NCBI GenBank assembly: GCA_949300515.1
Contig: CASGEP010000024.1
Location: forward strand, 1 to 59,242
Length of the DNA: 59,242 nucleotides
Source of the DNA: an uncultured bacterium
GTDB taxonomy: Bacteria; Cyanobacteriota; Vampirovibrionia; Gastranaerophilales; Gastranaerophilaceae
Reading direction: 5' to 3'
Made by a program: the position numbers and the translations under genes. The first letter of the stretch is position 1; the number at the start of each line of letters is the position of its first letter. The notes below the pieces were generated by a model. It was not told the DNA's origin, did no database searches, and saw only the letters and a program-made list of their open reading frames with translations. Shown in pieces: positions 30,068 through 55,841 of this stretch.

Positions 30068-30433
30068 ATGAAAAAGATCTTAGTTTTAGCATTAGCGGCA
30101 GTTTTTGTCTTGAGTGCTCCAACGCTTGCAAGAACAAAATATGACAAATACGGGCACAAAATAGAAAAAACAAAAAAAGTTAAAGTTCAAGCTGCAGCAA
30201 AAGTTGACGAACAAAAGGAAGAAAAAGTAAAAGAAAAAACAATAGAAGATGCCAGAGGCAGAAGCATGGGCAAAGCAGTGCGCGACGGTGACACTAACAA
30301 CTTTACAATGTATGACCAAAGAGGCAGAAAAACGGGTACATATGTTGAAGATGAAAACGGTAACGGCAAATACTACGACGTAAGAGGCAGAGAAATATCT
30401 CGCACCAATCGTCAAACAGAAGACATAAAATAA
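30068..30433 (+). CDS. Small secreted or periplasmic protein with RGR repeats
   Basis: 121 residues with a clear signal peptide (MKKILVLALAAVFVLSAPTLA, cleavage near residue 21). The mature part is highly charged; a lysine-rich middle (30-60) is followed by three copies of a short motif: DARGRSMGKAVRDG, YDQRGRKTGTYVED and YDVRGREISRTNRQ. TAGGAGA lies 7-8 nt before the ATG. No known family recognised. The 3' end overlaps the convergent GNAT gene by 22 nt. Confidence 0.82.
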   Translation: MKKILVLALAAVFVLSAPTLARTKYDKYGHKIEKTKKVKVQAAAKVDEQKEEKVKEKTIEDARGRSMGKAVRDGDTNNFTMYDQRGRKTGTYVEDENGNGKYYDVRGREISRTNRQTEDIK

Positions 30434-30912
30434 GTATAGACGTAATCGTCCATAACGAAACCGGCTCCTATGTCCGTGACAATCGAGTCGGTTTTTTTAA
30501 AGCCGAGTTTTTCATACACGGCAACAGAGCCTGTATTTTCTTTGTTTACCGTAAGTACAACCCTGTCGTAGCCCGTTTCTTTTGCTTTCTGTATTGCAAA
30601 ATCAATAGCCTTTCTGCCAAGCCCTTTGCCCCTGCTTTCTTTTTTAATGTAGAGTTTTGATAAAAACAAATACCCCGGACACTTTTGTAATCCTATATAC
30701 CCTGCGTTTTTAGAGTTATCGTTTATAAAATAATACTCATAACCGTCGCCCGTTTGTTTTCTAAAGGCGCTCTTTGACTGGAAGCTCTCCAGCATATAGG
30801 CAATCTGCTCGAATGACAAAATGTCCGAGTAGTGCTCATGCCATATTTCTTTTGCCAGATTTGCAAGTTTATCAAAATCTCTGTCTGTCAATATTAAAGA
30901 AAAGCTGTTCAC
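30412..30912 (-). CDS. GNAT-family N-acetyltransferase
   Basis: 166 residues; acetyl-CoA motif A is KESRGKGLGRKAIDFAIQKAKE and motif B NKENTGSVAVYEKLGFKKTD, ending with YVYTYFM. The layout resembles spermidine/RimI-like small-molecule or protein acetyltransferases; acceptor unknown. Confidence 0.9.
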   Translation of the reverse strand: MNSFSLILTDRDFDKLANLAKEIWHEHYSDILSFEQIAYMLESFQSKSAFRKQTGDGYEYYFINDNSKNAGYIGLQKCPGYLFLSKLYIKKESRGKGLGRKAIDFAIQKAKETGYDRVVLTVNKENTGSVAVYEKLGFKKTDSIVTDIGAGFVMDDYVYTYFMSSV

Positions 30913-31138
30913 AGGTTAAATATAGCACAAGAATTTTTAAAACTCCCGTACTTTTTACCTATCTTTGCTATCAATATAAATACGGTATAAAACTGAATGT
31001 ATTTAGTATGTTAAGAAATATTACAAGTGAAAATGCTTACAGCAGAAGGGTTTTAAAAAAAATATATAAAAGTTATGTCAATTTTTTATACAAAAATATC
31101 TTTATATATATAAGAGGACAACCACCTTAGGAGAGAAT

Positions 31139-32560
31139 ATGTCAGGTAACTACAGCTTTGCATTTGGATCTTATATAAACAGTTCGCTATACGAAGTCGG
31201 ACAAAACGCGCAAGAAGCTGCTTCGCAAACCGAAGAAAGCAGCAGCGGGCAATCAACGCAAGTAACGACTACTCCTTCATATTCCGACTATAATTATAAT
31301 ATGTACTCAAACTTCACAAATTTATCAAACGCAGACTTTGCTAATGCAGGCTCAAGCGTTTTCAATGCATATCAAAACACGTTATCAAATTTTAACATAG
31401 ACTACAGCCAGCCATACAGGGATATTCTTGATGATTTGTATGAAACCTGGGACAATATGGCGAATGAAGATGCCGTATCCGGTGCAACAGACGGAAAACA
31501 GGCAGCAACGGAAGCGGCGCAAGCTGCCATGACGCATGCCGAATCAGCTCAGGCAGCACTTGAGAACGTACAGGCAGCTTCAAACGAAGTTCAACAGGCA
31601 CTTGATGCAAATGATGAAGAAGCTGCCAAGGGAGCCGCAACACGTGCATTAGAGGAGGCTCAAAAAGCGCAGGAAGAAGCGCAAGCGGCTCAAGAAAAAG
31701 CAGACGCGGCACAAGAAGCAGCGGATGCGGCGGCTCAAGCAGCACGGGCAGCTGTCGGCACAGATGCGGAAGAAGAATGTGCGCGACTTGCACAGGAAGC
31801 CCAAAGCATAGCCGATACGTCACTTGCAGCCGTACAAAAGGCGCAAGAAATTGCTGACAGGGCAATGGAAATAGCAACGGAAGCAGCTCAAAAAGCTGAT
31901 GTTGACCCGTCTGTCGTTACAGAAGAAGACGATGGTAATACGGATGATGGCGAAGATGACGGAAATGTTGAAACTGAAACCGGAATGGAAAATTTAACCG
32001 ATGAAGAAAAAATATTAGTAAATGACGCTGTTGAGAGTATACTTGATGCAACCGTAAGGTATATGACAGGTCCGTTTAAACTCGGAACAGACGAAGATAT
32101 GCTTTTTAATATAATCGGTGATGAAAATTTAACTCCGGAACTTATGCAAGTTGTACAAACAGAGCTTGAGGCAAAAGGGTATAATCTTTTTGACTTAATA
32201 AAAAGCGAAACATCATTTGAAACGGAAGACATACTTGTTGGAGGTATGCTTGCAAAATTAGGCGGAAAAACAACAGACGGCAAAGTGGAACTTGAATCTT
32301 ACGGAAAATATGAAAATCTGGAAAAAACGGACCCCGAATATCAAAAATACATAAGACAATGCGTAAGCTTATTCAAACAAGCAACGGGCGGTTGGGGTTT
32401 CAATAAAGAGCTGTTCTGCTACATAATGAGTCTGCCCGAGGATATGAGAGCGGATGTTGAAAGTATGTACAACGAAAAATACGGCTCGGATAAAACCTTT
32501 GAAGAATTAGGCAGGGAAAAATCGACATCTGTTATAAAGGCATACTATTATAATGAATAA
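31139..32560 (+). CDS. Orphan protein: coiled coil plus two annexin-like repeats
   Basis: 473 residues, no signal peptide. Residues 1-100 are low complexity (S, N, Y, Q). Residues 118-253 form a strongly alanine/glutamate-rich helix, very likely coiled coil. An acidic linker (262-280) leads to two helical repeats: 295-375, containing GPFKLGTDEDMLFNII and LFDLIKSETS, and 402-470, containing GGWGFNKELFCYIM and MYNEKYGSDKTFEELG. The G-x-GTDED followed by a helix and the DL-x-x-x-I-K-S-E-x-S step match the annexin repeat pattern, where GT loop and glutamate bind calcium. Assignment is by eye; function unknown. SD TTAGGAGAGAAT precedes the ATG. Confidence 0.8.
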   Translation: MSGNYSFAFGSYINSSLYEVGQNAQEAASQTEESSSGQSTQVTTTPSYSDYNYNMYSNFTNLSNADFANAGSSVFNAYQNTLSNFNIDYSQPYRDILDDLYETWDNMANEDAVSGATDGKQAATEAAQAAMTHAESAQAALENVQAASNEVQQALDANDEEAAKGAATRALEEAQKAQEEAQAAQEKADAAQEAADAAAQAARAAVGTDAEEECARLAQEAQSIADTSLAAVQKAQEIADRAMEIATEAAQKADVDPSVVTEEDDGNTDDGEDDGNVETETGMENLTDEEKILVNDAVESILDATVRYMTGPFKLGTDEDMLFNIIGDENLTPELMQVVQTELEAKGYNLFDLIKSETSFETEDILVGGMLAKLGGKTTDGKVELESYGKYENLEKTDPEYQKYIRQCVSLFKQATGGWGFNKELFCYIMSLPEDMRADVESMYNEKYGSDKTFEELGREKSTSVIKAYYYNE

Positions 32561-32622: not shown

Positions 32623-33132
32623 ATGATTGAAATGAGAGTTATGGGCATTGCCCTTGATACAAGGAGCGGCTCACCCATTGTTGTTTTAAATGATTTGGAA
32701 AACAGGCGCGCGCTTCCTATCTGGATAGGCTCCGCAGAGGCAAGTTCCATTATAAGAAAAATCGAAAACATACCCTCTAGCCGCCCGATGACACATGATT
32801 TGTTTTTAAACTTTTGCAAAAGTGCAGGCTATGAAATAACAAAAGTTGAAATCAATGACGTAAACGAACAGACGTATTTTTCATCGGTTTATATGTTCAA
32901 CAGCGAACTGCAGAAAGATATTGAAGTTGATGCAAGACCGTCCGATGCCATTGCAATAGCAATAAGGGCAAACGTACCAATATATGTTACCGAAAACGTA
33001 ATTGCAACAGGAGTTGTTTCAACCGATACAAAAAAAGACGAAGAAGAAGCACAGGAGTTTAAAAACTTTATAAAAGACATTAAACCTTCCGATTTTGAAA
33101 AAATGATGAAAAATTTTGAATCTGATCAGTAG
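32623..33132 (+). CDS. Bifunctional nuclease (BFN/DUF151) domain protein
   Basis: 169 residues. The DUF151 domain fills residues 1-130: RVMGIALDTRSGSPIVVLND, LPIWIGSAEASSI and ARPSDAIAIAIRANVPIYV are the family landmarks. Members in plants and bacteria have been reported to act as nucleases; the biochemical role in bacteria is poorly known. The C-terminal 35 residues are charged. The expression signal lies in a hairpin (see preceding entry). Confidence 0.92.
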   Translation: MIEMRVMGIALDTRSGSPIVVLNDLENRRALPIWIGSAEASSIIRKIENIPSSRPMTHDLFLNFCKSAGYEITKVEINDVNEQTYFSSVYMFNSELQKDIEVDARPSDAIAIAIRANVPIYVTENVIATGVVSTDTKKDEEEAQEFKNFIKDIKPSDFEKMMKNFESDQ

Positions 33133-34790: not shown

Positions 34791-36908
34791 TTACACTCCT
34801 GCACTTAAAACCTGATCTCGTATAGCAATTACAGTTTTAATTAACTCATCGAGATAGGAAGCATCTATAGTTGTAATAGTTCTTGTATCAGGGTGTATGG
34901 CCATTGCCAACTGTCTGTATGCACTATTGTTTTTAGGATCAAGCATGAAGTTTTGAATTAAAGTTTGCAATTCTCTTATGTTTTTTGCTCCTTCTTGTGT
35001 CAAGCCTGCTGCTACATCATCCAATTGACTTAATGTATTACTTAATGGTTTTACATACTCTGCAAACGCATCTTGTTGCCACTGTGTAAAACCACCAACA
35101 CTACTTGCAGTTCTCAAGGTGTCATCAGTAGTACCCGCACCCAATAAAAGAGTGTTATCAACGCTGCCTGCCGCACTTCCTGCTGCACTGCCCGCAGCGC
35201 CTGTTGCACTACCTGCTGTACCACCAGCTGCACCACCTGCTGCGCCTGTTGCACTACCTGCCGTTGCAGCACTTCTCATTGCACCAAATGCCCTTGCTGT
35301 TTGGGCACCGCTTAACGCACCAAGAGCTACATTTTCACCAAACTCAAGCGCATTTGCGCCAACATCTCCCATTGCTTGTTGTGCTTGGGCATCTGTTTGA
35401 GCATTATTGTAAGATTTCATACCTTCTATTGCTCCGCCAACTGCCCTTGCAGCACCATATAATGCTCCGCCAAGCCCTGCTATACCAACTACAGCTGCAA
35501 CTACAGGCGCACCAACAATTGCCCCTGCCGCTAAACATACTGCGCCGACACCGCCGACAGCTGCTGCAGTAGCCACAGGATGTTCCTTAACTGTTGAAAC
35601 CACACCGCTGACTTGCTCTTTTGCTTTATCAACTACGCCTTGAGCAAAAGCATCTACTTGCTCTTCAAGAGCTAGCTCGCCATCGTCCCAACCGGTATAT
35701 TCAGTACCCGTAACATTTTGATATGCGCCTGATAGTTTATCCAAGTAGTCTTTTTGTGTTTGTCCTGAAAAATCATTTTTAAAATCTTTATAAATTTCAG
35801 AACCCGTAACTCTATTGTAATTATCCATTACAGATGTTAAGACTTCATCGCTTGCGCTATTCATAACAGACTCTACAAACTCTTCAGCTGCACCATGCAT
35901 ATCGCCCGTAGCATTATACAATTCGGAACACAACAGTTCAACTGCAGCAGGATTACCTTGTTGAGCAGATTCCAATATTCTTGATGTCATTTGATTCATT
36001 ATTTGTGTTCTGTCGTTACCGTTAAAATCGCCATCTACATCTTGGACAAAACTACTGTCAAATGTTGACTCGTAGTACGAAAGAACATTTACCCAATCAT
36101 CTGCACTCAATTCTTCATTATTTATAAGTTCACTAAAAGCACTTTCATTGACCCCAAGACCATCATCCATTGAATCTTGGAGTTTTTGGGCATATTCAGC
36201 TACTTGCTCTTCACTCAACGTAGTATTTCCAACATAGCGACCTGCTCCACCACCTACGGCACCACCTTCACCTGTAACAGCACCACCTTCACCTGCGGCA
36301 CCACCACCTGTAACAGCACTTGAAGATGTATCAACAAGATTTATTCTTTGGTCGGGATGAATTACTGTAGCATTATAATCTTCCTGCAAAACGTCGGGAT
36401 TTGCCTCAACCAGTTTTGAATAAATTTCTCTGCCTTCATCACTGTATAGTGACACACCATAAGTGTTATAAATTAATCTTGAAATACAATCTATATTATC
36501 TTCTTTGTTTATATCGAATTCATCAACAGTAACATAGTGCTGTCCATTTTCATCTTTTTGAATTTTATCAGCACTTCTTCCACTGAAACACTCGGGGAGA
36601 GTATCATCTTGGGCTGCACTTGAATCTGTTACAGGCGAGTTTAAATCATCGTATGATAGAGTTTCTTGCACTCCATCCGTTGCACTAATTGTACCAATTG
36701 TGTTTAAAAGTTCTTCATCTTCAGGGTCAATGTCCCAGTTCTCTGCAAGTTCTTGAACAAACGTGTCATTGTTTAAAACTTCAGAACCTTCTTCCAGACA
36801 ATTTTCAAAAACCGAGTTAATTTCTTCTTCGGTTGCCTCAATTCCTTTAAGTTCCAAATATTTAATAATACTTTGGACTCCGTTAATTGCTCCTGTTTGA
36901 TCTGCCAT
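34791..36908 (-). CDS. Large multidomain orphan protein with annexin-like repeats and glycine-rich hydrophobic core
   Basis: 705 residues from ATG 36908 (AAGGTG 6 nt upstream; GTG 36917 is possible). Visible parts: acidic N-terminal domain (1-90); an EF-like/LysM-like stretch (about 125-195, with YVTVDEFDINKEDN and EANPDVLQEDYN); a glycine-rich linker (about 200-225); two annexin-like helical repeats (about 233-307 and 312-394, with DGLGVNESAFSELI and NDFSGQTQKDYL); a long glycine/alanine hydrophobic segment (about 444-492) able to enter a membrane; a simple G-A-T-S repeat tract (546-584); and a C-terminal helical region with SAYRQLAMAIHPDT, which resembles helix II plus the HPD tripeptide of J domains. 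No signal peptide. Function unknown. Confidence 0.82.
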   Translation of the reverse strand: MADQTGAINGVQSIIKYLELKGIEATEEEINSVFENCLEEGSEVLNNDTFVQELAENWDIDPEDEELLNTIGTISATDGVQETLSYDDLNSPVTDSSAAQDDTLPECFSGRSADKIQKDENGQHYVTVDEFDINKEDNIDCISRLIYNTYGVSLYSDEGREIYSKLVEANPDVLQEDYNATVIHPDQRINLVDTSSSAVTGGGAAGEGGAVTGEGGAVGGGAGRYVGNTTLSEEQVAEYAQKLQDSMDDGLGVNESAFSELINNEELSADDWVNVLSYYESTFDSSFVQDVDGDFNGNDRTQIMNQMTSRILESAQQGNPAAVELLCSELYNATGDMHGAAEEFVESVMNSASDEVLTSVMDNYNRVTGSEIYKDFKNDFSGQTQKDYLDKLSGAYQNVTGTEYTGWDDGELALEEQVDAFAQGVVDKAKEQVSGVVSTVKEHPVATAAAVGGVGAVCLAAGAIVGAPVVAAVVGIAGLGGALYGAARAVGGAIEGMKSYNNAQTDAQAQQAMGDVGANALEFGENVALGALSGAQTARAFGAMRSAATAGSATGAAGGAAGGTAGSATGAAGSAAGSAAGSVDNTLLLGAGTTDDTLRTASSVGGFTQWQQDAFAEYVKPLSNTLSQLDDVAAGLTQEGAKNIRELQTLIQNFMLDPKNNSAYRQLAMAIHPDTRTITTIDASYLDELIKTVIAIRDQVLSAGV

Positions 36909-37002
36909 CTTACACACCTTACTGTATTATAAGTTTAATTCACATAAATGCTGACGACACAAACACGCTGTAACTTTAGAAAAATTTAAAAAATTTTTAC
37001 AT

Positions 37003-46504: not shown

Positions 46505-47125
46505 ATGGATAAAAAAATTTCAGACAATACAATTAATCGCCTTACCCTTTATCACTGCATTTTAAGTGATTTTTTGTCGTCGGGAGAAAGCACTATAACA
46601 TCCGTTCAGATTGCAAACCTTCTAAAAATTGACGATTCACAGGTAAGGAAAGATATTTCACTGCTTAAAAACAGCGGCAAGTCGCGCGTCGGCTATATTA
46701 TTGCCGACTTAAAGAAAGCAATAGAGGGCACTCTTGGTTTTTCGCACCCAAAAAACGCTTTTATCGTGGGTGCGGGAAATTTGGGGCTTGCCCTTGCAAA
46801 ATATGACAACTTTTTAAACTACGGCTTAAATGTTCTTGCGCTTTTTGACAACGACACTCTAAAGGTCGGTGCAACCATTAACAAAAAAGAAGTTTATCAC
46901 ATCTCAAAACTGCCCGAACTCGCGCAGGAAATGGGAGTTCAAATGGTGCTTTTAACCGTCCCCAGAAGTGCTGCCCAAAAAACCGCAGACTTTCTTGTAA
47001 ATTCAAACATAAAATATATTTGGAATTTTTCCCCGTCAGTTCTTAATGTCCCTGAAGGTGTTGAAATTTGGAACGAAAACCTCATGGGGAATTTTTTACA
47101 TTTTTCTTATAAAATTTCAAACTAA
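46505..47125 (+). CDS. rex: Redox-sensing transcriptional repressor Rex
   Basis: 206 residues: N-terminal winged helix with ITSVQIANLLKIDDSQVRKDIS (the DxSQVRKD recognition helix) and a Rossmann NADH domain with FIVGAGNLGLALAKY, then the swapped C-terminal helix. Binds operators when NADH is low relative to NAD+. I start at ATG 46505, which fits family length; ATG 46472 lies inside the adhE terminator stem. No SD. Expected target: the Rex box upstream of adhE. Confidence 0.93.
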   Translation: MDKKISDNTINRLTLYHCILSDFLSSGESTITSVQIANLLKIDDSQVRKDISLLKNSGKSRVGYIIADLKKAIEGTLGFSHPKNAFIVGAGNLGLALAKYDNFLNYGLNVLALFDNDTLKVGATINKKEVYHISKLPELAQEMGVQMVLLTVPRSAAQKTADFLVNSNIKYIWNFSPSVLNVPEGVEIWNENLMGNFLHFSYKISN

Positions 47126-47790
47126 AAATCAATATTAAAATAGCTGTCAAAATAGCTTGATGTATCTGATGTATCTATATTTTGTCCTAAATTAAAATAG
47201 GCATCAAAATACGACGATGAACCCGATGAAGTGTTTAGGTTTTGCCCCAGATTAAAATAGCTTGAAAAATATGAACCCGTGCCCGAGCTTGAAGATGAAC
47301 CCGAGCTTGAACCCAGATTTTTTGTATCTACACCGAGGTTCTCAAGTATGGAATTTGCAATCAAATTGCCGACGCAATCAACTACTTCATCATAAAGCGA
47401 CTCAAGCCGCTTCATATCGGAAGTACTGCCTTTTGAAAGATTTTTAATATCGCTTAACATAGAATCATAAATCGAGTCTGAAGATGAGCTTTGACCTAAG
47501 TTAAAGTAACCGTCAAAGTAGCTTGATGTGCCGGATGTATCAATGTTTTGACCTAAGTTAAAATAACTGTCAAAGTAGCTTGATGTATTTGAGGTATCAA
47601 TATCCTGACCGTAGTTAAAATAATTAGAAAAAATGCTTTCGGACTGCGGGAGATTTTCACTGTAGGAGTCGCTGTCCCAGTATTTGTTTAAAAAGGCATT
47701 GTGTCTTGTCGGGTCCGCCTCATCCATAGATACCGGATCCGGCTGGAACCAAAACCCTCTAAAAGTATATGAACCGTAATCAGTAGACAT
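47122..47790 (-). CDS. Orphan protein with six SSYFDxYFNLGQ repeats
   Basis: 222 residues. Six copies of a 19-residue unit (consensus SSYFDSYFNLGQNIDTS) occur: three in the first half (about 50-105), three at the C-terminus (about 170-222), separated by a helical segment (about 108-160, with LYDEVVDCVGNLIANSILENLG) and a serine/glycine linker. Alternating aromatic and polar residues suggest beta strands or a filament. No signal peptide. SD ATAAGGAGAGAGATT precedes the ATG; tail overlaps rex by 4 bp. No known family recognised. Confidence 0.78.
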   Translation of the reverse strand: MSTDYGSYTFRGFWFQPDPVSMDEADPTRHNAFLNKYWDSDSYSENLPQSESIFSNYFNYGQDIDTSNTSSYFDSYFNLGQNIDTSGTSSYFDGYFNLGQSSSSDSIYDSMLSDIKNLSKGSTSDMKRLESLYDEVVDCVGNLIANSILENLGVDTKNLGSSSGSSSSSGTGSYFSSYFNLGQNLNTSSGSSSYFDAYFNLGQNIDTSDTSSYFDSYFNIDF

Positions 47791-55184: not shown

Positions 55185-55841
55185 ATGTCAACCAACGGTA
55201 TTCATTCTCAAATGCAGACATGGCTTAATAACCATGGGCAAAACGTTACAAAATTTTCGAATTCTCTGACAGAAATCGAAACCCGCCTTGATGAAATTTC
55301 ACGGGAAATGCAGGGAGAACTGACTCAGGGCGAAAAAAGCGAACTGGAGCAGCGCCTGAGCAATTTGGAGGCTCAATACCTGCAGTCTGAGCTTGACTAT
55401 TTAAAAGGCATTGAAGAAGCAGGCGAAAATTTCGATTTTATGGAAGCCGAATACGACATATCAGACGAACAGACTTTTGTACCTGCCTATGTTGAACAAA
55501 CGGGAAAACTGGCACAGGGCGATATGGATGCCTGGGAAACCGACGGAGAGGACAACATAAGCCTTGAAGAATATAAAGCGGCACAGCTTGGCGACCCTAA
55601 TCTGGCTGAAATCAGCGAACAGGAGTACGAAGCCGCGGTTGAATATATGGAGGAAATCTTTGAAGGCATAGATGTAGACGGCGACGGAGTTCTTGAGAAA
55701 AACGAGCTGCAGGGATTTTATGCCGCGCTTGATAATATAGACGGCTCGGTCGACGGCAAAATAAATTATCAGGCAATCGGAGCAGACTACACAAGCGAAA
55801 AATTCCAAAAAAATATCAGGGAATTTCAAAGTTTTCTGTAA
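55185..55841 (+). CDS. EF-hand calcium-binding orphan protein
   Basis: 218 residues. A helical N-terminal half (about 20-75, coiled-coil-like) and an EF-hand C-terminal half: degenerate loop 118-129 (E-x-D-x-E-D-x-I...E), canonical loop 163-174 (D-V-D-G-D-G-V-L-E-K-N-E) and a third loop from 186 lacking the final glutamate. No signal peptide. Own promoter region and terminator. Function unknown; calcium binding is predicted for the middle loop. Confidence 0.87.
   Translation: MSTNGIHSQMQTWLNNHGQNVTKFSNSLTEIETRLDEISREMQGELTQGEKSELEQRLSNLEAQYLQSELDYLKGIEEAGENFDFMEAEYDISDEQTFVPAYVEQTGKLAQGDMDAWETDGEDNISLEEYKAAQLGDPNLAEISEQEYEAAVEYMEEIFEGIDVDGDGVLEKNELQGFYAALDNIDGSVDGKINYQAIGADYTSEKFQKNIREFQSFL

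What the first reader, a model, noticed from the sequence alone, without database searches (positions are those of the whole stretch)
31139..32560. Annexin-like repeats in a bacterial coiled-coil orphan protein
Residues 306-360 follow the annexin repeat order: G-x-x-GTDED, amphipathic helix, then DLIKSETS with the acidic residue expected to cap a type II calcium site. A weaker second copy follows at 402-470. Annexins are mainly eukaryotic; bacterial cases are rare. The long Ala/Glu coiled coil in front suggests a tethered membrane- or calcium-binding module.
Basis: partly seen in the sequence, partly recalled or inferred. Interest (0 to 1): 0.7.

Follow-up and report, generated by a model that had tools for sequence, protein, structure and literature searches.

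The report
Two-repeat annexin in gut cyanobacterium relative
A gut bacterium related to cyanobacteria carries a protein that ends in two repeats of the annexin family, a family best known for calcium-controlled membrane binding in animals and plants, and many of its relatives carry such proteins too.

Summary
ORF 31139-32560 (473 aa) ends in two. Pfam PF00191 gives 24.4 bits, E 3.1e-5, just under its cut-off of 25; an ortholog gets 41.1 bits. A profile built without the window's genus finds it at 39.5 bits; the best of 1092 shuffled or reversed controls gets 10.5. Models show five helices per repeat; the match to annexin structures is strong only for the neighbouring protein.

Repeat 1 keeps a type II calcium loop and acidic cap; repeat 2 has lost its loop here (GWGFN) but not in five orthologs. 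The annexin part shows 7 synonymous and no non-synonymous changes against a near relative.

It is no orphan: orthologs in 7 of 7 genus genomes, a second annexin protein at 34791-36917(-), matches in 134 of 241 order genomes; three fetched relatives have four repeats. Bacterial annexins were catalogued in 2014, not from this order. The coiled coil is not conserved. Calcium and lipid binding, location and export are untested. Parts of a second type-III-like export set are in the genome; nothing ties them to the annexins.

The parts
31139..32560 (+). 473-aa two-repeat annexin protein (P0001)
31129..31135 (+). AGGAGAG, Shine-Dalgarno-like, just upstream of the ATG
   Evidence: read from the sequence
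31139..31453 (+). N-terminal region, residues 1-105: no signal-peptide-like or TM stretch; in some orthologs a DYSxxY motif is weakly shared with genes upstream
   Evidence: best 19-residue mean hydropathy in the first 40 residues 0.06; E 2e-5 for one ortholog; the window protein itself is not hit
31481..31906 (+). Ala/Glu/Gln-rich helical spacer, residues 115-256; length and composition differ in five orthologs
   Evidence: period 3.4, 0 of 1000 shuffles
32000..32257 (+). Annexin repeat 1, residues about 288-373 (profile-matched core 314-366)
32078..32098 (+). Predicted type II calcium loop of repeat 1, KLGTDED (314-320)
   Evidence: GTDE invariant in 6 of 6 aligned genus sequences
32207..32209 (+). 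E357, predicted acidic cap of that site (SETS invariant in 6 of 6)
32333..32548 (+). Annexin repeat 2, residues about 399-470 (profile-matched core 407-455)
32390..32404 (+). Degenerate calcium loop of repeat 2, GWGFN; GxGT[DN] in 5 other orthologs
34791..36917 (-). Second annexin protein of the window, 708 aa: N-terminal region, two annexin repeats, hydrophobic stretch, C-terminal region
36012..36200 (-). Annexin repeat 1 of the second protein (residues 240-302; loop GLGVNE)
35751..35939 (-). Annexin repeat 2 of the second protein (residues 327-389; loop HGAAE here, WGTAD in L004)
35418..35579 (-). Hydrophobic, Gly/Ala-rich stretch, residues about 447-500, that may form a membrane hairpin
   Evidence: 19-residue mean hydropathy 2.43 at 459; limits by eye, hairpin is inference

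Best explanation
The ORF encodes a bacterial member of the annexin-repeat family (PF00191) with half the repeats of a eukaryotic core: two repeats at the C-terminus of a protein without a signal peptide or TM stretch, on a spacer of variable make-up behind an N-terminal region. Shown: homology, two repeats, predicted helix order, a constrained annexin part, one calcium-loop motif kept. Inferred: with calcium, the loop K314-D320 and E357 of repeat 1 bind an anionic phospholipid headgroup, docking the C-terminus reversibly on a membrane, while repeat 2 stabilises the pair and, in this species, no longer binds calcium. The N-terminal region would bring a partner or another copy to that membrane. 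Which membrane (own inner membrane, or outside the cell) is not known.
For: PF00191 E 3.1e-5 at 24.4 bits; ortholog L055 41.1 bits, over the cut-off, E 1.8e-10. Held-out profile E 3.1e-11 (database size set to 1000), each repeat on its own 4.8e-5 and 6.9e-5, controls at 10.5 bits or less. Profile of P0001 and five orthologs against PDB sequences: annexin V E 5.9e-16. Model helices fall in two sets of five. Neighbour's pair: pLDDT 82, pTM 0.81, 78 PDB chains at E<=0.001, the 50 shown being annexin entries or annexin A2 fusions (fusion names). GTDE and SETS of repeat 1 invariant in 6 of 6 genus sequences. Annexin part against L004: 7 synonymous, 0 non-synonymous changes over 113 and 460 sites. 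In 35 repeats of other genera, 31 have G, T and acidic cap together.
Against: No binding was tested. P0001 alone stays under Pfam's cut-off. Its model is weak: pLDDT 64, pTM 0.49, single sequence, best Foldseek E 0.01, TM about 0.3, so the packing of the two repeats is not modelled. Only one of the two calcium loops is kept, and its first glycine is lysine; both loops of the neighbour are altered, so calcium-independent binding is possible. The 35-repeat count leans towards the motif, as the repeats were found with annexin profiles. The low dS to L004 (0.065) rests on 7 changes.
Confidence: 0.72

Rival explanations
1. It is an annexin fold kept as a protein-protein scaffold: the repeats have largely lost calcium binding and act as an adaptor between partners in the cytoplasm.
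For: Repeat 2 loop is GWGFN; both repeats of the neighbour protein have altered loops (GLGVNE, HGAAE). No signal-peptide-like stretch.
Against: Repeat 1 loop and cap are invariant in 6 of 6 genus sequences, and 5 orthologs keep a GxGT[DN] loop in repeat 2 as well.
Confidence: 0.2
2. It is exported by a second type-III-like apparatus and acts on membranes of host or neighbouring cells, the annexin pair being the membrane-docking part (not exclusive with the best explanation).
For: No signal-peptide-like stretch. Some orthologs share a weak N-terminal motif with upstream genes of different C-termini. FHIPEP, in two full-length classes or a short one, in 241 of 241 order genomes. In the own genome a FliE, FliF, FliH, FHIPEP set and a FliM/N, FliO, FliP, FliQ, FliR set apart from the flagellar contig. 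Annexin domains sit in toxins of other bacteria (PMC3482391, passages read).
Against: The FHIPEP and FliP genes lie on contigs C6, C15 and C27, the annexin genes on C24. FHIPEP is in all 241 genomes, annexin matches in 134, so presence gives no association test. Four of the 241 show only the short FHIPEP class. The window protein's own N-terminus is not hit by the motif profile and ortholog L055 only at E 0.024. Secretin, needle, ATPase and translocator genes were not looked for.
Confidence: 0.12
3. Not an annexin: a low-complexity helical protein that matches by composition.
For: Ala/Glu-rich spacer; 24.4 bits is under Pfam's cut-off; no Foldseek match at E<=0.001 for P0001.
Against: The match lies outside the spacer; shuffles and reversed proteins reach 10.5 bits at most; orthologs pass Pfam's cut-off or fit annexins.
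Confidence: 0.02

Closest known systems
Bacterial annexins of Kodavali et al. 2014 (PMC3894181; abstract and all of Results and Discussion read)
   Same: PF00191 repeats, GxGT[D] loop, one to several repeats per protein, added domains, pairs of short annexin genes next to each other in some genomes.
   Different: Their 34 proteins in 17 species come from Bacteroidetes, Gemmatimonadetes, Proteobacteria and Actinobacteria; 'cyanobacter' occurs 0 times in the text. They found only weak similarity to full tetrads; here relatives have four clear tandem repeats, and P0001 has two on a variable spacer.
Animal annexins A4 and A5 (PDB 2zoc, 1bcz)
   Same: Repeat sequence and helix order; repeat 1 fits best the third domain match of annexin V, repeat 2 the second.
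   Different: Four repeats in the animal core, two here; 13-21% identity in the 50 fold alignments shown.
Annexin domains in polymorphic toxins (Zhang et al. 2012, PMC3482391; three passages read)
   Same: Annexin repeat within a larger bacterial multidomain protein.
   Different: There a single annexin domain is followed by an enzymatic toxin domain; P0001 ends with the annexin pair and has no other Pfam match better than E 7.8.

Membership tests
Annexin-repeat family PF00191 (bacterial annexins) | Significant match to the annexin repeat profile | tested here: met
   P0001 E 3.1e-5, 24.4 bits, under the curated 25; ortholog 41.1 bits, over it; held-out profile E 3.1e-11; ortholog profile to annexin V 5.9e-16
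Annexin-repeat family PF00191 (bacterial annexins) | Five-helix (A-E) repeat fold, P0001 | tested here: inconclusive
   Two sets of five helices but pLDDT 64; the matches are annexins at best E 0.01
Annexin-repeat family PF00191 (bacterial annexins) | Five-helix (A-E) repeat fold, neighbour protein 34791-36917(-) | tested here: met
   Ten helices, pLDDT 82; 78 PDB chains at E<=0.001
Annexin-repeat family PF00191 (bacterial annexins) | Type II calcium site: GxGT loop plus acidic residue about 40 positions on | tested here: inconclusive
   Repeat 1 has KLGT plus E357 at +41, first G replaced; repeat 2 lost its loop
Eukaryotic-type annexin | Core of four (or eight) repeats | tested here: not met
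   Two repeats only; relatives L044, L045 and L051 have four
Eukaryotic-type annexin | Calcium-dependent binding to anionic phospholipid | not testable with these tools
   needs protein
Type III secretion substrate | Secreted through a type III apparatus | not testable with these tools
   some apparatus genes present; no link to the annexin genes shown

The most novel reading that the evidence does not exclude
Gut Gastranaerophilales use a second, non-flagellar type-III-like apparatus to export a family of modular signal-less proteins, some with annexin cores up to a full tetrad, that dock on host or neighbouring membranes in the calcium-rich gut.
Probability: 0.1. Interest if true: 0.87.

Novelty: new member of a known kind. 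Interest (0 to 1): 0.52.

Why it matters
[quoted passage not shown] Here one bacterial order of animal guts has them in many genomes, from single repeats to four clear tandem repeats. That gives bacterial proteins for a direct test of calcium-dependent membrane binding, and many sequences for the question of where annexins came from. The listings of my searches of the held library showed no report of annexins in this order; I opened five papers in all, and most subscription papers are not in that library.

Tried and rejected
LysM-like segments beside the annexin repeats (seen by eye in the second window protein, L054, the gene before L045's annexin gene, and L051): four pieces gave no LysM match in Pfam at a limit of E 10, so dropped. 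GNAT-like and deamidase-like C-termini that I suspected by eye in L052, L056 and L058: no Pfam match to such families at E<=0.1 (weak DUF3232 at 0.087 in L052, DUF2207_C at 0.013 in L056), so not claimed. A eukaryotic origin by recent transfer: the genus profile scores annexin V at 62 bits and the best paralog among the fetched loci at 49.4, but both may lie near the family consensus and a 65-residue repeat gives a weak tree, so no claim and no tree. Association of annexins with the export apparatus by presence and absence: not possible, all 241 genomes have FHIPEP. Annexins in phages: tblastn of a two-repeat stretch of L045 found none in 50,697 records; one IMG/VR contig has one. My first iterated profile had one false seed (L051 263-333); it was removed, and the significance figures come. 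Genome counts with PF00191 are lower bounds: one search's first look missed P0001 itself, and one search lists no match for the own genome at E<=0.001. Rows dropped: A6 holds 40 of the 47 repeats that one search printed (the 7 left out were mostly near-duplicates and included two window repeats); A1 and A7 leave out L004, identical to the window there, and A1 one overlapping L045 pair.

Full report
What is there. ORF 31139-32560(+) encodes 473 residues behind AGGAGAG at 31129-31135. The one locus that a scan of named genome contigs returned is a contig of Candidatus Galligastranaerophilus intestinavium (L004, 96% identity, residues 1-473 matched), order Candidatus Gastranaerophilales, Melainabacteria.

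Annexin repeats are real. Pfam scores PF00191 at E 3.1e-5, 24.4 bits, cut-off 25, two stretches. Single-sequence phmmer against PDB sequences gives 32 distinct annexin sequences at E<=0.002 with annexin A4 first at 7.3e-7; the next, unrelated, hit is at 0.063. To exclude circularity I built a profile from 35 repeats of other genera only. At a set database size of 1000 it finds P0001 at E 3.1e-11 (39.5 bits; 314-364 and 408-451) and the second window protein at 8.9e-30 (98.9 bits; 240-302 and 327-389). The next window ORF (of those of 60 aa or more that my script lists) scores 10.3 bits, and 1092 controls (400 shuffles, 692 reversed ORFs) reach 10.5 bits at most. A profile of P0001 and five orthologs hits annexin V at 5.9e-16. 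Ortholog L055 passes Pfam's cut-off on its own (41.1 bits, 1.8e-10). Against this, single six-frame matches in the own genome score only E 0.003 (P0001) and 0.004 (second protein), none over the cut-off, in a search where 7 of 14 control genomes ring at E<=10.

Fold. P0001 283-473 was folded alone: pLDDT 64.0, pTM 0.49, ten helices in the order of two annexin repeats with two short strands between them. Foldseek gave 260 matches at E<=10, none at E<=0.001. Of the 50 rows shown, 48 are annexins, giardins (annexin relatives, recalled) or annexin A2 fusions by their titles or by the chain names; the other two (7pc3, 7pc5) are PDZ entries of the same series, whose fusion I recall. Best E 0.01, TM about 0.3. 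The pair of the second protein, folded with its L004 copy, gave pLDDT 82.0, pTM 0.81 and 78 matches at E<=0.001; the 50 shown are annexin entries or such fusions.

Calcium site. Residues 314-320 are KLGTDED and E357 is the acidic cap at +41; offsets in relatives are 40-42. GTDE and SETS of repeat 1 are invariant in 6 of 6 genus sequences. The loop of repeat 2 is GWGFN in the window and L004, but GxGT[DN] in the 5 other orthologs L055, L059, L060, L061 and L038. In the 35 repeats of other genera, 31 have G, T and an acidic cap together, 26 of them also the first G; these repeats were found by annexin profiles, so the count leans upward.

Selection. Against L004, residues 283-473 show 7 synonymous and 0 non-synonymous changes over 113 and 460 sites; residues 1-105 show 1 and 0; the spacer (106-281) 27.5 and 21.5. 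The annexin part is therefore constrained, on few changes.

The spacer and N-terminus. Residues 115-256 are Ala/Glu/Gln-rich with a 3.4-residue period that 0 of 1000 shuffles reach. The five orthologs outside L004 have other acidic or repetitive spacers there, so the coiled coil looks like a local filler. There is no signal-peptide-like or TM stretch. Upstream of the orthologs in L055, L059, L060 and L061 lie one or two genes with a similar start and a DYSxxY motif but different C-termini. A profile of four of those starts hits ortholog L059 at E 2e-5, L061 at 2e-4, L060 at 1.6e-3, L055 only at 0.024, and not the window protein. A shared N-terminal adaptor is thus suggestive, no more.

Distribution. 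P0001: 8 of 241 order genomes at E<=0.001, comprising all 7 genomes of the genus in that set (one search lists the set) and one weak hit outside, E 8e-5, mostly over the spacer. PF00191: 94 of 241 at E<=0.05, 19 over the cut-off (many of the weak ones may be chance, and B. subtilis rang among 14 controls; P0001 itself was missed by the first look there). Order profile A6: 134 of 241 at E<=0.001 (A6 was built from some of these genomes, and that search reports no control genomes). In a phylum sample PF00191 hits 16 of 292 at E<=0.001: 14 in the same family, 1 in the class, 1 elsewhere; 0 of 14 controls; the own genome is not among the 16. Four tandem repeats occur in L044, L045 and L051, three of the 20 stretches fetched; Pfam gives L044 E 5.1e-64 and L045 5.7e-56, four stretches each, and L051 two stretches.

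Second annexin protein of the window. 34791-36917(-), 708 aa: PF00191 E 1.7e-4 at 22.1 bits, annexin 6b3i E 8e-7, then a hydrophobic stretch and a C-terminal region without a convincing Pfam match. Its loops are GLGVNE and HGAAE.

Export. The own genome has three FHIPEP genes, five flagellin matches over the cut-off, and, apart from the FliP-FHIPEP cluster on C6, further export genes on C15 and C27. None lies near the annexin genes, and no test here links them.

Known work. Kodavali et al. 2014 (PMC3894181; abstract and Results and Discussion read) list 34 bacterial annexins in 17 species, none from this lineage by their table. Zhang et al. 2012 (PMC3482391; three passages) place annexin domains before toxin domains. 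The 2024 review (PMC10882027; passages) calls prokaryotic annexins a possible discovery. The listings showed no annexin report in this order.

Verdict. A new member of a known kind: a two-repeat bacterial annexin, part of a set spread through an order. Calcium-dependent membrane docking through repeat 1 is the most likely mechanism; location and partner are unknown.

Noticed in passing
own genome G000:C15 (L066 11446-17414) and C27 (L098 5861-9927); also G001 (L088, L099): A second type-III-like export set apart from the FliP-to-FHIPEP cluster on C6: FliE, YscJ/FliF, FliH and FHIPEP on C15; FliM/N, FliO, FliP, FliQ, FliR on C27, by Pfam. FHIPEP is in 241 of 241 order genomes; the lower-scoring full-length class is also the best match in genomes such as G001, and four genomes show only a short class. 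Of 8 genomes tested, 4 have one FliP only, of the lower-scoring class; G001 keeps the gene order (names there by eye). Soo et al. 2014 (PMC4040986, passages) already noted flagellar gene subsets in six of nine Gastranaerophilales genomes, held not to make a flagellum; three searches of the held library showed no report of a type III system here (listings). ATPase, secretin and needle genes were not looked for.
   Followed up: partly
L044 5437-8509, L045 4470-6530, L051 4975-8157: Four tandem, well-conserved annexin repeats in one bacterial protein; L044 has a second annexin gene with two repeats next to it, and L045's protein has a weak EF-hand-like match (Pfam E 0.016, under its cut-off).
   Followed up: partly
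L076 (IMG/VR contig IMGVR_UViG_3300006922_000046), 4653-5648: An annexin-like repeat (GWGTDEE) in a 331-aa protein of a putative viral contig; the 2014 survey reported none in viruses. A search of 50,697 phage records with another annexin query found none.
   Followed up: partly
window 30412-31139 against L004 386-3280: L004 has two genes (412 and 267 aa) between an acetyltransferase-like gene (by eye) and P0001 that the window lacks.
   Followed up: no
window 32623-33132: The bifunctional-nuclease-like gene (name by eye) next to P0001 has dS 1.08 against L004, while three neighbours have 0.04-0.18: local recombination is likely.
   Followed up: no
window 47122-47790 (-): A 222-aa protein with repeated units like SYFDSYFNLGQNIDTS, no useful NCBIfam match.
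   Followed up: no
window 55185-55841 (+): EF-hand-like protein (by eye); weak NCBIfam match to a type III calcium-binding effector family, far below its cut-off (22.4 bits against 120).
   Followed up: no
own genome G000:C7:32589-32702 (L003): Weak annexin-like match (E 0.2) in a 258-aa open frame with a hydrophobic C-terminus; matches of similar span in frames of similar length recur and were not examined.
   Followed up: partly
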